Positions 11,882-26,298 of a DNA stretch of 64,000 bases are shown piece by piece. A model generated the notes under the pieces. It did no database searches. It was not told where the DNA came from and worked only from the letters and a program-made list of their open reading frames with translations. Made by a program: the position numbers and the translations under genes. Numbering within the stretch: the stretch's first letter is position 1; the number at the start of each line of letters is the position of its first letter. Source of the stretch: Streptococcus mitis (lineage in GTDB: Bacteria > Bacillota > Bacilli > Lactobacillales > Streptococcaceae); contig NZ_CP012646.1 of assembly GCF_001281025.1 (NCBI RefSeq), positions 649,001-713,000 of the forward strand. The letters run 5' to 3'.

Positions 11882-12274
11882 ATGTCACAAGCACAATATG
11901 CAGGTACTGGACGTCGTAAAAACGCTGTTGCACGCGTTCGCCTTGTTCCAGGAACTGGTAAAATCACTGTTAACAAAAAAGATGTTGAAGAGTACATCCC
12001 ACACGCTGACCTTCGTCTTGTCATCAACCAACCGTTCGCAGTTACTTCAACTGTAGGTTCATACGACGTTTTCGTTAACGTTGTAGGTGGTGGATACGCT
12101 GGTCAATCAGGAGCTATCCGTCACGGTATCGCTCGTGCCCTTCTTCAAGTAGACCCAGACTTCCGCGATTCATTGAAACGCGCAGGACTTCTTACACGTG
12201 ACTCACGTAAAGTTGAACGTAAGAAACCAGGTCTTAAGAAAGCTCGTAAAGCATCACAATTCTCAAAACGTTAA
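11882..12274 (+). CDS. rpsI: 30S ribosomal protein S9
   Basis: The 130-residue S9 protein, whose C-terminal arginine tail reaches the P-site tRNA. Recognisable from YAGTGRRKNAVARVRLVPG, GGGYAGQSGAIRHGIARAL and the closing KKARKASQFSKR. The protein is complete. Its last 51 bases are copied in altered form 14 kb downstream, which shows that the 3' end of this gene has served as the integration site of a mobile element. Confidence 0.98.
   Translation: MSQAQYAGTGRRKNAVARVRLVPGTGKITVNKKDVEEYIPHADLRLVINQPFAVTSTVGSYDVFVNVVGGGYAGQSGAIRHGIARALLQVDPDFRDSLKRAGLLTRDSRKVERKKPGLKKARKASQFSKR
12224..12274 (+). repeat. Left attachment region (attL) in the 3' end of rpsI
   Basis: These 51 bases match 26248-26298 at 44 of 51 positions by eye, with an identical 15-base stretch TTCTCAAAACGTTAA at 12260-12274 (and 26284-26298) that is the likely core. 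Integration of streptococcal ICE/IME elements into the 3' end of rpsI by tyrosine recombinases is established, and an integrase gene lies just inside. Confidence 0.82.
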
Positions 12275-12298
12275 TCAACACGATTATATCAACGTTTC

Positions 12299-12335
12299 AA
12301 AGCACTTTGCAAAAATTTTGCAAAGTGCTTTTTTG
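12299..12335 (+). terminator. Terminator of rplM-rpsI
   Basis: A long near-perfect stem, AAGCACTTTGCAAAA with TTTTGCAAAGTGCTT, followed by a T run. It lies just inside the left border of the integrated element, so it is probably supplied by the element. Confidence 0.9.
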
Positions 12336-12405
12336 TCGATTTTTGAGCTCAAATAGCTTTGTGATAACCTTCTGATAACCTCTTCTAAATTTTTAAAATC
12401 ATGAT

Positions 12406-13560
12406 TTATTTTGCTTTATTGAGATAGTCTGCAAATTTGTCAATAGAGTTTTTCTCACCAGTTTTTGTGGTGTGAGTATAGACATCTAATGTCACCTGAC
12501 TGCTTGCATGACCGAGACGTTTTGATGTATTAGAAGGATCGATTCCAATTTCAGACATAAGTGTTGCATGTGTATGTCTAAACCCATGTGGGCTAATTGG
12601 TTTTAATTTATGCTTTTTAATAATTCGATTCAGTACGTTATTAATGTAATCAGCATGCAAAGGTTCAATTTTGTCATTACTTGATATGTAAGAGAACATA
12701 TATTCATCACTAATATTCAGCTTTGTAAGAGGAAGCTGAGATTGTTCTTTCAGATAGAAATTTCTCCATTGCTTAATAATATCGATTGTCTCATCATCAA
12801 GATAGATTGTACGAACTGAAGATTCATTCTTTGTGCTCTTTTCAATCGCTTTACCGTCAATTCTTCCTAGACTTTTATCTATGTTCAATAGATTGCTGTC
12901 AAAGTTAATATCAGCCCATTTTAAAGCGTATAACTCCCCTTTTCGTAGTCCACTAAATGCAAGCAGTCTAAATAAAGCAAAATGTTTAAATGGCTCGGTT
13001 TCTTTCACTATATCAAGGAAATGATGTAATTCCTCCAGTGACCAAAAATTATCTGATCTAGTTTTTTTGATTTTAGGCATGATAACATTCTTCATTGGAT
13101 TTCGATCAATGTAGTTCATGTTGATTGCAAAATCAAAAATTTTTGAGGTATAGGATTTTATCTGTTTGATATTTTTGAAAGTCTGAGATTTTTGTGTAAT
13201 AAAGTTTTGACAGTCTAAAGGACTGATTTGGTCAATAAATTTATCGCCAAATATTGGTAGAATATGTATTCGATAGATATTCTTAGTTTGGGAAGAAGTT
13301 GTTTCTTCAACGGTACCAACATAGGCATTAAACCATTCTTGATAAAGTTCTTTATAAGTGACTTTGGGGTTAGGTTTGTCGGTACTTACTGTGGGGGCAA
13401 CGACACCAGCTTCTAAACGAGCTTCGTACAATTTTGCCTCTTTTTTGGTTTTGAACCCTCTCTTTAAGTGCCTTTTTTTCTTTCCATAAGCATCTAAGCC
13501 AATGTAAAAGCTGACATAGTATAGGATTCCTTTTTTTGTTTTGTATTTGTGTATAGACAT
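12406..13560 (-). CDS. int: Tyrosine integrase of the rpsI-integrated element
   Basis: A 384-residue site-specific recombinase. The N-terminus (KTKKGILYYVSFYIGLDAYGKKK, about 7-50) looks like the arm-type DNA-binding domain of Tn916-class integrases; a SAM-like core-binding domain follows (about 65-150). The catalytic domain has R in AFSGLRKGELYALKW, the H-G-F-R-H-T-H-A-T block, H in RLGHASSQVTLDVY and the tyrosine nucleophile in that same DVYTHTTKTGEK segment. The stop is about 130 bases from the attL core, the usual place. The ATG at 13560 has a GGAG ribosome site. It should act on the rpsI 3' end. Confidence 0.93.
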   Translation of the reverse strand: MSIHKYKTKKGILYYVSFYIGLDAYGKKKRHLKRGFKTKKEAKLYEARLEAGVVAPTVSTDKPNPKVTYKELYQEWFNAYVGTVEETTSSQTKNIYRIHILPIFGDKFIDQISPLDCQNFITQKSQTFKNIKQIKSYTSKIFDFAINMNYIDRNPMKNVIMPKIKKTRSDNFWSLEELHHFLDIVKETEPFKHFALFRLLAFSGLRKGELYALKWADINFDSNLLNIDKSLGRIDGKAIEKSTKNESSVRTIYLDDETIDIIKQWRNFYLKEQSQLPLTKLNISDEYMFSYISSNDKIEPLHADYINNVLNRIIKKHKLKPISPHGFRHTHATLMSEIGIDPSNTSKRLGHASSQVTLDVYTHTTKTGEKNSIDKFADYLNKAK

Positions 13561-13576
13561 TTTTTCTCCGTATCTA

Positions 13577-13608
13577 AGTTTTCGGAGCTTATGTAATTGA
13601 GAAATGAG
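13577..13608 (+). repeat. Repeated motif copy M1
   Basis: First of three copies of a roughly 30-base motif with the invariant core TTCGGAGCTTAT. M1 lies between the integrase start and the repressor stop. It matches M2 (14237-14267) at about 28 of 32 positions, and matches the reverse complement of M3 (26103-26133) at about 28 of 31. Confidence 0.85.
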
Positions 13609-25992: not shown

Positions 25993-26046
25993 TCTTTGAC
26001 GGAGTTAATGAATACAAGAATGTAAAATATATTCGGTGAATAGAAA

Positions 26047-26090
26047 TATCCCCTAACGGTCAGTAATTGTTAGGGGATGTTGTATTATTA
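26047..26090 (+). terminator. Probable terminator after the surface protein gene
   Basis: ATCCCCTAAC and GTTAGGGGAT form a perfect ten-pair stem around an 11-base loop, about 55 bases after the stop codon. The T run that follows is broken (GTTGTATTATT), so it may be less efficient. Confidence 0.65.
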
Positions 26091-26102
26091 ATTTTATTGT
26101 AT

Positions 26103-26133
26103 TTCTTTCTCAACTACATAAGCTCCGAAAACT
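26103..26133 (-). repeat. Repeated motif copy M3 (inverted, near the right end)
   Basis: The reverse complement reads AGTTTTCGGAGCTTATGTAG and continues TTGAGAAA, matching M1 at about 28 of 31 positions. It lies about 150 bases inside the right border of the element, in opposite orientation to M1 and M2. Confidence 0.85.
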
Positions 26134-26247
26134 AAAAAGTAATAACCTCTTGATTTTTAAAAGGATTATATATGTAAAAATTGAGGATTTATCTCTTAAA
26201 AGAACTTGATTTTAGTGATAATTTACCATAAATATCATAATGTAGAA

Positions 26248-26298
26248 AAACCAGATCTTAAGAAAGCTAGTAAAGCTAGCCAGTTCTCAAAACGTTAA
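26248..26298 (+). repeat. Right attachment region (attR): duplicated rpsI 3' end
   Basis: 51 bases matching the end of rpsI (12224-12274) at about 44 of 51 positions, including the identical TTCTCAAAACGTTAA ending in the same stop codon. There is no S9 gene before it. It is followed by its own terminator. The seven differences include a cluster (GCATCACAAT versus GCTAGCCAGT) that keeps the same reading frame. Confidence 0.85.

What the first reader, a model, noticed from the sequence alone, without database searches (positions are those of the whole stretch)
12224..26298. Element integrated in rpsI whose main cargo is a 2596-residue adhesin, but whose relaxase is missing
Seen: rpsI end copied at 26248-26298 with a 15-base identical core; integrase, CI-like repressor, Xis-like, replisome organizer and two MobC-like genes inside; no relaxase, coupling or secretion gene. 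Known: streptococcal ICE/IME elements use the rpsI 3' end. Inference: this is an IME that lost its relaxase where the IS now sits, and that spreads or once spread a giant surface protein. An adhesin as main cargo of such a small element is unusual.
Basis: partly seen in the sequence, partly recalled or inferred. Interest (0 to 1): 0.72.

Follow-up and report, generated by a model that had tools for sequence, protein, structure and literature searches.

The report
Stranded conjugation hitchhiker with giant adhesin
A mobile element in the rpsI gene of an oral streptococcus belongs to a family in which no examined member has its own transfer enzyme and whose transfer-start site copies that of larger conjugative elements; this copy carries a giant surface protein instead of the usual cargo and has lost that start site.

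Summary
In detail: a 14,075-bp element sits in the 3' end of rpsI, with intact integrase, CI-like, Xis-like, replisome-organizer and two MobC-like genes, and the 2596-aa Rib/LPXTG adhesin between its ends. The inference that a relaxase was lost where the IS sits is not supported. Near-identical cores occur in 8 other Streptococcus genomes and 62-75% relatives at 19 more places; no MobP or MobV relaxase is found in 24 loci from 21 of these genomes. Of 27 relatives with integrases at 62% or more, 25 carry behind the mobC pair a non-coding block matching the oriT of ICESa2603/Tn5252-type ICEs: published nick motif, inverted repeat with compensatory changes, distal CCCCAAACCCC. Both MobC-like proteins are homologous to the ICE's relaxosome accessory protein; MobC2 matches PcfF, which recruits a relaxase. 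Sister elements with 57-61% identical integrases do carry MobV relaxases. So this is a relaxase-less, oriT-mimicking family (MGI/iOriT type). What this copy lacks at the IS is the oriT, so it is probably stranded for conjugation. Relatives read carry metal-resistance, defence or other cargo; the adhesin is the exception. Mobilization itself is inferred, not tested.

The parts
11882..12274 (+). rpsI (ribosomal protein S9), host gene used as attachment gene; attL = 12224-12274
   Evidence: ORF list; att copy comparison; rpsI-int junction in relatives
12406..13560 (-). Tyrosine integrase, 384 aa, intact
   Evidence: Pfam Phage_integrase E 1.1e-22; 98-100% identical in 8 other genomes
13577..13605 (+). 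Conserved 28-bp site, copy 1, upstream of int; candidate regulator or excisionase site (inferred)
   Evidence: Three copies in the window, copies in relatives
13612..14136 (-). CI/RstR-like HTH repressor
   Evidence: Pfam HTH_3 E 1.2e-7; NCBIfam RstR 8.8e-8, below cut-off
14239..14267 (+). Conserved 28-bp site, copy 2, upstream of the xis-like gene
14263..14559 (+). Xis-like HTH DNA-binding protein
   Evidence: PHROG 668 HTH DNA-binding E 5e-10; PHROG 66 excisionase only 0.0035
14568..15407 (+). Replisome organizer
   Evidence: Pfam Phage_rep_org_N E 8.4e-48
15400..15759 (+). MobC1, relaxosome accessory protein homologue
   Evidence: NF040666 E 3.4e-4; 31-38% to the ICE accessory protein next to the relaxase; family profile to PcfF E 8.9e-4
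15767..16099 (+). MobC2, PcfF-like ribbon-helix-helix accessory protein
   Evidence: NF040666 E 3.3e-11; PcfF 6qeq E 1.4e-7 for this protein alone; family profile 2.2e-14
16080..16274 (+). orf64, conserved small protein of unknown role
   Evidence: 98-100% identical where held in the near relatives
16295..16302 (.). Left break, inside the hairpin behind orf64 (hairpin read from the sequence). The non-coding block that follows in relatives, holding the oriT-like sequence, is absent here
   Evidence: blastn jump at 16295/16296, 376 bp in five of the near loci compared and 260 bp in L048, landing on an IS-end-like stretch; alignment; no oriT motif in the window or own genome
16302..17735 (+). IS3-family insertion sequence (family by my reading), 1 of 5 full-length copies in the genome; flanking triplets differ, so no target duplication is seen
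   Evidence: Pfam; own-genome search; terminal sequence
18202..25992 (+). Cargo: 2596-aa Rib/alpha-like LPXTG surface protein (adhesin); 456-bp repeat, 7.0 copies, at 21722-24930
26099..26247 (+). Element's own right end, with the third 28-bp site at 26106-26133 (inverted)
   Evidence: Part of the 171-177 bp that are 85-87% identical to right ends of five near relatives
26248..26298 (+). attR, copy of the rpsI 3' end
   Evidence: 44 of 51 identical to attL
26385..26744 (-). Remnant of a second tyrosine integrase of a decayed element in tandem at rpsI
   Evidence: Pfam E 2.9e-6 for its longest ORF; 81.5% over 119 aa to a longer copy in L048

Best explanation
The element is a member of a relaxase-less integrative mobilizable family (MGI/iOriT type) that lives at the 3' end of rpsI in streptococci. 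Shown by sequence: intact members encode integrase, repressor, Xis-like protein, a replication protein and two RHH-type relaxosome accessory proteins, followed by an oriT-like block that shares the nick motif, the inverted repeat and the distal block with the oriT of MobP-relaxase ICEs (ICESa2603/Tn5252 type). Inferred: after excision as a circle, the element's own MobC1/MobC2 bind this oriT and recruit the relaxase of a co-resident ICE, which nicks it and delivers it through the ICE's secretion system; the integrase then inserts it into rpsI of the recipient. In the window's copy the stretch from just behind orf64 to near the right end is an IS plus a giant Rib-type adhesin in place of oriT and the usual cargo, so this copy can probably still excise and integrate but can no longer be mobilized in trans.
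For: Near-identical core (96-100% aa) in 8 other genomes and 62-75% relatives. No relaxase recognised in ORFs of 18 relatives, in the part held; no MobP or MobV by tblastn in 24 family loci from 21 genomes, while controls are found. oriT pattern: 101 hits in 83 of 284 genomes, reversed control 0. 58 hits are of the ICE type, 56 with a MobP relaxase within 3 kb; 43 are of the family type, 31 with an rpsI-type integrase within 6 kb and 0 with any of the 150 listed MobP places within 20 kb. Of 27 integrases at 62% or more (window not counted), 25 have the oriT within 6 kb. Of 15 more loci with a MobP relaxase ORF, 14 carry the core with 1-2 of 15 bases changed, about 0.8 kb upstream. The published ICESa2603 oriT has inverted repeat GATATTGTG and predicted nick 5'-CTCG/CAAA (PMC4735348, passages), both in the shared motif. 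In the inverted repeat, 3 of 8 pairs vary on both sides with pairing mostly kept. MobC homology to the ICE protein and PcfF. MobC1, MobC2 and the ICE protein each fall on one side of a branch; mobC median dN/dS 0.06-0.29 in three sub-groups. The core is 99.7% identical to that in the S. sanguinis SK1 contig while rplM-rpsI beside it is 91.8%. Window: motif absent. Sister elements carry MobV and lack the motif.
Against: No transfer was tested. Family-type and ICE-type oriT do not co-occur more than chance: 10 of 39 family-bearing genomes, Fisher p 0.27. The own genome has no ICE-type oriT hit and no good MobP match (best E 7.9e-5). 12 of 43 family-type and 2 of 58 ICE-type oriT hits lack the expected neighbour. 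The two integrases at 62% or more without oriT are G059:C7 (broken up by transposases) and G160 (truncated, not inspected); at 61%, G179 has the oriT and G043, G044 and one of G015 do not. MobC1 alone matches PcfF only at E 0.05. For five of the six near relatives with host genes held, the host stretch is 97.1-99.9% identical, so only SK1 separates core from host clearly; in L038 the core is less identical than the host genes (97.2 against 99.1%). A relaxase of an unknown kind cannot be excluded; the Pfam lists were cut at 25 families.
Confidence: 0.82

Rival explanations
1. One reading: a canonical IME that encoded its own relaxase and lost it where the IS sits.
For: Two mobC-like genes without a relaxase, an IS directly behind them and no target duplication. 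Related rpsI IMEs with MobV relaxases exist.
Against: The near-identical relatives show no relaxase at that place either. The mobC-oriT module is kept without a relaxase down to integrases 61-64% identical. The MobV-bearing sister elements lack the oriT motif and show no mobC pair in their ORF lists.
Confidence: 0.04
2. The family is a set of immobile remnants; near-identical copies in different species arose by natural transformation and recombination at rpsI, not by mobilization.
For: Mitis-group streptococci are naturally competent (recalled, no call). The window copy lacks oriT. Some genomes hold oriT pieces without the integrase. No excess co-residence with ICEs.
Against: Low dN/dS of both mobC genes, compensatory changes in the oriT repeat, intact integrases, and the same module in S. 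entericus, S. minor, S. suis and S. alactolyticus. The core is 99.7% identical to that in the SK1 contig, whose neighbouring host genes are 91.8% identical, which fits element-precise movement.
Confidence: 0.12
3. A phage satellite (PICI-like) rather than a conjugation hitchhiker.
For: CI-like repressor, Xis-like protein and a phage replisome organizer.
Against: No packaging, terminase or capsid gene among the families shown for 46 ORFs of 8 relatives. Two relaxosome accessory genes and an ICE-like oriT instead. No relative of mobC2 in the viral contigs.
Confidence: 0.03
4. The adhesin is a late local passenger (cargo swap by IS-linked or homologous recombination) that this element never carried between cells. 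This rivals the first reader's claim, not the family identification.
For: No adhesin hit in 25 related loci from 22 genomes. 52-55% homologues in three genomes are not beside rpsI in the stretch held. The IS has no target duplication and the oriT is gone.
Against: It lies inside the element's own right end, so excision by the integrase would still move it. Adhesins 92-99% identical over residues 1-850 exist in other assemblies, with context unknown here.
Confidence: 0.55

Closest known systems
Relaxase-less IMEs of Gammaproteobacteria: MGIVflInd1 (oriT like SXT ICEs) and MGIVchHai6/MGIVmi1 (own MobI); 'MGI' or 'iOriT' (PMC5704250 section 3.2 read; PMC11389934 passages)
   Same: Own integrase and excision factor, no relaxase, coupling protein or secretion system; oriT resembling a helper's, or, in the MobI group, an own relaxosome protein.
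   Different: Proposed helper here is a MobP ICE of Gram-positives; two paralogous RHH accessory proteins; rpsI site; own phage-type replication protein. The 2017 review calls the MobI group's oriT unidentified; here both parts are seen together.
IMESag-rpsI and other streptococcal IMEs with MobV relaxase (PMC5090054 and PMC5357655, passages)
   Same: Same insertion gene; related elements L145 and L146 at rpsI, and L147 beside a gene that reads like ribosomal L31 (my reading), have 57-61% identical integrases with CI-like and Xis-like genes in the same order.
   Different: L145-L147 carry a Mob_Pre/MobV relaxase, no ICESa2603-like oriT motif and no mobC pair in the ORF lists.
ICESa2603/Tn5252-family ICEs (PMC4735348, passages)
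   Same: oriT core, inverted repeat, distal block, and a MobC protein homologous to both MobC1 and MobC2.
   Different: They carry the MobP relaxase; the accessory operon runs in the opposite direction relative to oriT.
PcfF of pCF10 (PMC6514445, abstract read)
   Same: MobC2 aligns with PcfF over residues 6-98; family profile over 5-115.
   Different: PcfF works with its own plasmid's relaxase PcfG; here no relaxase is encoded.
MGI_Ssal22_rplL and other streptococcal MGIs (PMC7563491, passages)
   Same: Integrase but no relaxase; the authors judged the rplL group not decayed.
   Different: 28-38 kb elements; no oriT was reported in the passages I saw.

Membership tests
Canonical streptococcal IME (own relaxase) | Own integrase and attachment sites | tested here: met
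Canonical streptococcal IME (own relaxase) | Own relaxase gene | tested here: not met
   None in the window; none recognised in 18 listed relatives; no MobP/MobV in 24 family loci
Relaxase-less IME (MGI/iOriT) | Integrase and Xis, no relaxase, coupling protein or secretion genes | tested here: met
   the Xis call is weak. A TrwB_AAD_bind match I attribute to the HerA-like protein of L047
Relaxase-less IME (MGI/iOriT) | oriT related to that of a conjugative helper (family level) | tested here: met
   published nick motif and repeat
Relaxase-less IME (MGI/iOriT) | oriT present in the window's own copy | tested here: not met
   0 hits at up to 3 mismatches in window and own genome
Relaxase-less IME (MGI/iOriT) | Mobilized in trans by the helper | not testable with these tools
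   Needs mating or nicking assays
Decayed ICESa2603/Tn5252 ICE | Remains of MobP relaxase or secretion genes | tested here: not met
   No MobP by tblastn or within 20 kb of family-type oriT among 150 listed places; no secretion gene recognised in the ORF lists, which is a reading, not a search
Phage satellite (PICI-like) | Packaging or capsid-interference genes | tested here: not met
   None among the families shown for 46 of 64 ORFs of 8 relatives; lists cut at 25 families
PcfF-like relaxosome accessory proteins | Homology to PcfF over RHH domain and stalk | tested here: met
   MobC2 E 1.4e-7, profile 2.2e-14; MobC1 weaker: 0.05 alone, profile 8.9e-4
Rib/alpha-like LPXTG surface protein | Rib repeats and cell-wall anchor | tested here: met
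   Pfam Rib 19 stretches, Gram_pos_anchor E 3e-5; TIGR02331 E 7.5e-282
Rib/alpha-like LPXTG surface protein | Adhesion activity | not testable with these tools
   Function is inferred from domains

The most novel reading that the evidence does not exclude
The family is a specialised parasite of ICESa2603/Tn5252-type ICEs: it keeps two diverged PcfF-like accessory proteins and an oriT with the helper's nick site, so that its own relaxosome scaffold captures the helper's MobP relaxase, possibly out-competing the helper's own oriT. Variable cargo (metal resistance, R-M, CBASS-like and SIR2-HerA-like defence, or a giant adhesin) is attached directly behind the oriT.
Probability: 0.45. Interest if true: 0.75.

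Novelty: new variant of a known kind. Interest (0 to 1): 0.6.

Why it matters
Published surveys of streptococcal IMEs used the relaxase as the signature. Their authors noted many integrase-bearing, relaxase-less elements (data not shown, PMC5357655) and counted such elements as MGIs, not IMEs (PMC7563491). This family gives such elements a concrete proposed mechanism and a search handle: an oriT motif plus a PcfF-like pair. The family-type oriT was found in 39 of 284 genomes of the genus. It makes helper dependence directly testable and suggests that metal-resistance, defence and, in this strain, surface-protein genes ride on an ICE family that also spreads drug resistance. For the window it explains why no relaxase is found and why the copy is probably stranded.

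Tried and rejected
Rejected: relaxase lost at the IS (no relative read has one). Rejected: attR by chance (the right end is conserved in relatives). Rejected: adhesin outside the element (its right flank is element sequence). Led nowhere: viral-contig scans for the adhesin and mobC2 found no relatives. A structure prediction of MobC2 was not run because the machine was busy; the PcfF match made it less needed. The ICE dN/dS value is invalid (the script read those genes on the wrong strand) and is dropped. The satellite values leave out pairs with dS of 0.02 or less, and single pairs reach 0.66. Co-residence of family and ICE oriT was tested and is not significant. The genomic context of the 92-99% identical adhesins (best 120 of 799 listed) could not be read. 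One search scored only 3 candidates per genome.

Corrections made on checking: one search used only 57 relaxase places that I copied, most of them chosen near ICE-type hits, so its zero for family-type hits was partly by construction. One search repeats the test with all 150 listed places and adds a direct tblastn; the result stands. The and one search lists were themselves cut ('more matches are not listed'). My first count of integrases (26 of 27 at 61%) was wrong in its cut-off; at 62% it is 25 of 27, G160 included. L147 is not at rpsI. In one search I listed 64 ORFs of 80 aa or more and scanned 46; the 18 left out were the mobC genes and several ORFs of L060, L061 and one of L046.
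Full report
What was checked. The window is G000:C1:649001-713000 of a single-contig 1.9 Mb genome; Streptococcus is inferred from its relatives. The element runs from attL in rpsI (12224-12274) to attR (26248-26298), 14,075 bp. The two att copies agree at 44 of 51 bases and share a 15-base core found nowhere else in the window at up to 2 mismatches.

Relatives. In 284 genomes the integrase occurs at 98-100% identity in 8 other genomes, at 74-75% in 5 and at 62-64% at 14 more places. A scan with the replication protein gave named loci, among them S. 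mitis SK579 and SK564, S. sanguinis SK1, S. pseudopneumoniae 75_SPSE, S. suis, S. minor, S. entericus and S. alactolyticus. In the eight near relatives the genes from int to orf64 are 96-100% identical in protein; G130 lacks cI. Six of them have rplM and rpsI directly before int; in G102 only a copy of the rpsI end is seen, and the G105 contig starts beside int.

No relaxase found in the family. I listed ORFs for 18 relatives, 8 near and 10 distant; several contigs end before the right end of the element. I recognised no relaxase. A direct tblastn with a MobP and a MobV relaxase found none in 24 family loci from 21 genomes, while control loci with such genes were found. Pfam scans of 46 of 64 ORFs from 8 relatives show no relaxase among the families listed, 25 of 38 and 25 of 36. 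Cargo behind the mobC pair varies: a cadmium-type transporter, with further metal-response genes in some, in G184, G088, G130 and G202; an R-M protein with SIR2 and HerA proteins in G102; type I or ISP R-M, cyclase, ABC-transporter or radical-SAM clusters in distant ones.

The contrast. Elements with integrases 57-61% identical, L145 and L146 at rpsI and L147 beside a gene that reads like ribosomal L31, carry a Mob_Pre/MobV relaxase with E at or below 4e-72 and lack the oriT motif. L148 (54%) has only a 40-residue MobV piece and no motif.

The conserved block. Behind the mobC operon, relatives share a non-coding block with CTTTGCGAGCTCAGA, an inverted repeat and, further on, a G-run followed by CCCCAAACCCC. 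A genus-wide search for CTTTGCGAGCTCAGANNNTGTATACACAC with up to 3 mismatches gave 101 hits in 83 of 284 genomes, and the reversed control gave none. The hits fall into two kinds. One kind (58 hits; TATTGTG type) has a MobP relaxase within 3 kb in 56 cases. The other kind (43 hits) has an rpsI-type integrase within 6 kb in 31 cases; none of the 43 has any of the 150 listed MobP places within 20 kb. The first kind lies about 0.8 kb upstream of the relaxase, with two small accessory genes between. I fetched 16 further relaxase places; 15 gave a relaxase ORF and 14 of these carry the core with 1-2 of 15 bases changed. The exception, L138, has a relaxase 46% identical to the query. The published oriT of the ICESa2603 family has inverted repeat GATATTGTG and a predicted nick at 5'-CTCG/CAAA (PMC4735348, passages); both are part of the shared motif, the nick read on the other strand. 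Among 11 distinct repeat sequences, pairs 3, 4 and 5 of the 8-bp stem change on both sides, with 9, 11 and 9 of 11 paired. Of the 27 integrases at 62% or more, 25 have this oriT within 6 kb. The exceptions are G059:C7, broken up by transposases, and the truncated G160. At 61%, G179 has it while G043, G044 and one of G015 do not; G044 is the MobV-bearing L145.

The accessory proteins. Both MobC1 and MobC2 are homologous to the ICE protein encoded next to the relaxase: window proteins 31-38%, other family members up to 43%. MobC2 matches the PcfF structure sequence at E 1.4e-7 alone and 2.2e-14 as a family profile; MobC1 is weaker (0.05 alone, 8.9e-4 as profile). PcfF is an RHH protein that binds and bends oriT and recruits the relaxase PcfG (PMC6514445, abstract). 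In a tree of 34 proteins, MobC1, MobC2 and the ICE protein each form one group, with long branches flagged. Median dN/dS of the mobC genes within three sub-groups is 0.06-0.29. I read this as an old module kept under selection without a relaxase.

What happened in the window. Window sequence matches relatives up to 16295. The next match is a 47-bp stretch at the IS end, 376 bp further on in five of the near loci compared and 260 bp in L048. The break lies in the loop of a hairpin behind orf64 (read). The oriT motif is absent from the window and from the whole genome, which also has no good MobP match (best E 7.9e-5). The IS has no matching flanking triplets (sequence), and five full-length copies at 82-100% exist in the genome. 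From 26099 on the sequence is element again, 85-87% identical to the right ends in G184, G102, G088, G130 and G202. The adhesin is therefore inside the element, in the place of the usual cargo, and the oriT is gone. Whether the IS caused the exchange is inferred.

The adhesin. Its N-terminal 850 residues match 57 listed proteins at 92-99% identity in other assemblies, one of them named from S. mitis, and records named Gemella and Granulicatella at 71-77%. Among the 284 genomes only three others have it over most of that region (52-55%), at places without rpsI in the stretch held. Seven perfect 456-bp repeats explain part of its size. Adhesion is inferred from domains.

Does the family move? 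The core is 99.7% identical between the window and the S. sanguinis SK1 contig, while the adjoining rplM-rpsI stretch is 91.8% identical, which fits recent movement between species. The other five relatives with host genes held have host stretches 97.1-99.9% identical and say little; in L038 the core is less identical (97.2%) than the host genes (99.1%). Against ICE dependence stands the lack of enriched co-residence: 10 of 39 family-bearing genomes, Fisher p 0.27.

Known or new. Relaxase-less IMEs are a known kind (PMC5704250 section 3.2; PMC11389934 passages). The review names two small Firmicutes cases, MTnSag1 and tISCpe8. Coluzzi et al. saw many relaxase-less integrase elements in streptococci without showing data (PMC5357655), and Lao et al. 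counted such elements as MGIs, not IMEs (PMC7563491). Searches of the open-licence library listed no paper that I recognised as describing an rpsI family with an ICESa2603-like oriT and a PcfF-like pair; subscription papers are mostly not held. I therefore call it a new variant of a known kind.

Noticed in passing
13577-13605, 14239-14267, 26106-26133: A 28-bp site occurs three times (before int, before xis, inverted near attR) and is found at about 96% identity in many relatives, also where the integrase is only 61-64% identical; likely a regulator or excisionase site. In G130 (L049) the cI gene is missing between the two direct copies, of which one remains.
   Followed up: partly
21722-24930: 456-bp repeat, 7.0 copies at 100% identity inside the adhesin; the 57 close relatives listed are 1466-1894 aa, possibly partly because short-read assemblies collapse such repeats.
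   Followed up: partly
26385-26744: Remnant of a second tyrosine integrase right of attR; a longer copy lies right of attR in L048, so rpsI holds tandem elements.
   Followed up: yes
30358-31788: A second full copy of the same IS (82% identical, opposite strand) sits at the start of a sugar ABC permease-like gene downstream of a two-component system (26915-30104).
   Followed up: partly
L105, L106 (G196:C2): Three family-type oriT copies within about 14 kb downstream of rpsI, without a family integrase within 6 kb: looks like accreted remnants.
   Followed up: partly
L101, L102, L103: Family-type oriT next to a DNA methyltransferase-like gene and a shared set of further genes, near galactose genes, in three genomes: the motif also occurs away from rpsI.
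   Followed up: partly
39285-41749; L095, L096, L098, L111: A LexA-like repressor plus UmuC-like polymerase cassette lies in the window and, as related copies, beside the ICE oriT in four ICE loci (by reading of the ORFs).
   Followed up: no
between rep and mobC in L054, L063 and others: A conserved protein of about 96 aa (probably DUF5962) sits between rep and mobC1 in distant family members but not in the near group; two unrelated replication proteins alternate at the rep position.
   Followed up: no
L048, right of attR: A 610-aa reverse-transcriptase-like ORF (retron-like by my reading) lies in the tandem element beyond attR.
   Followed up: no
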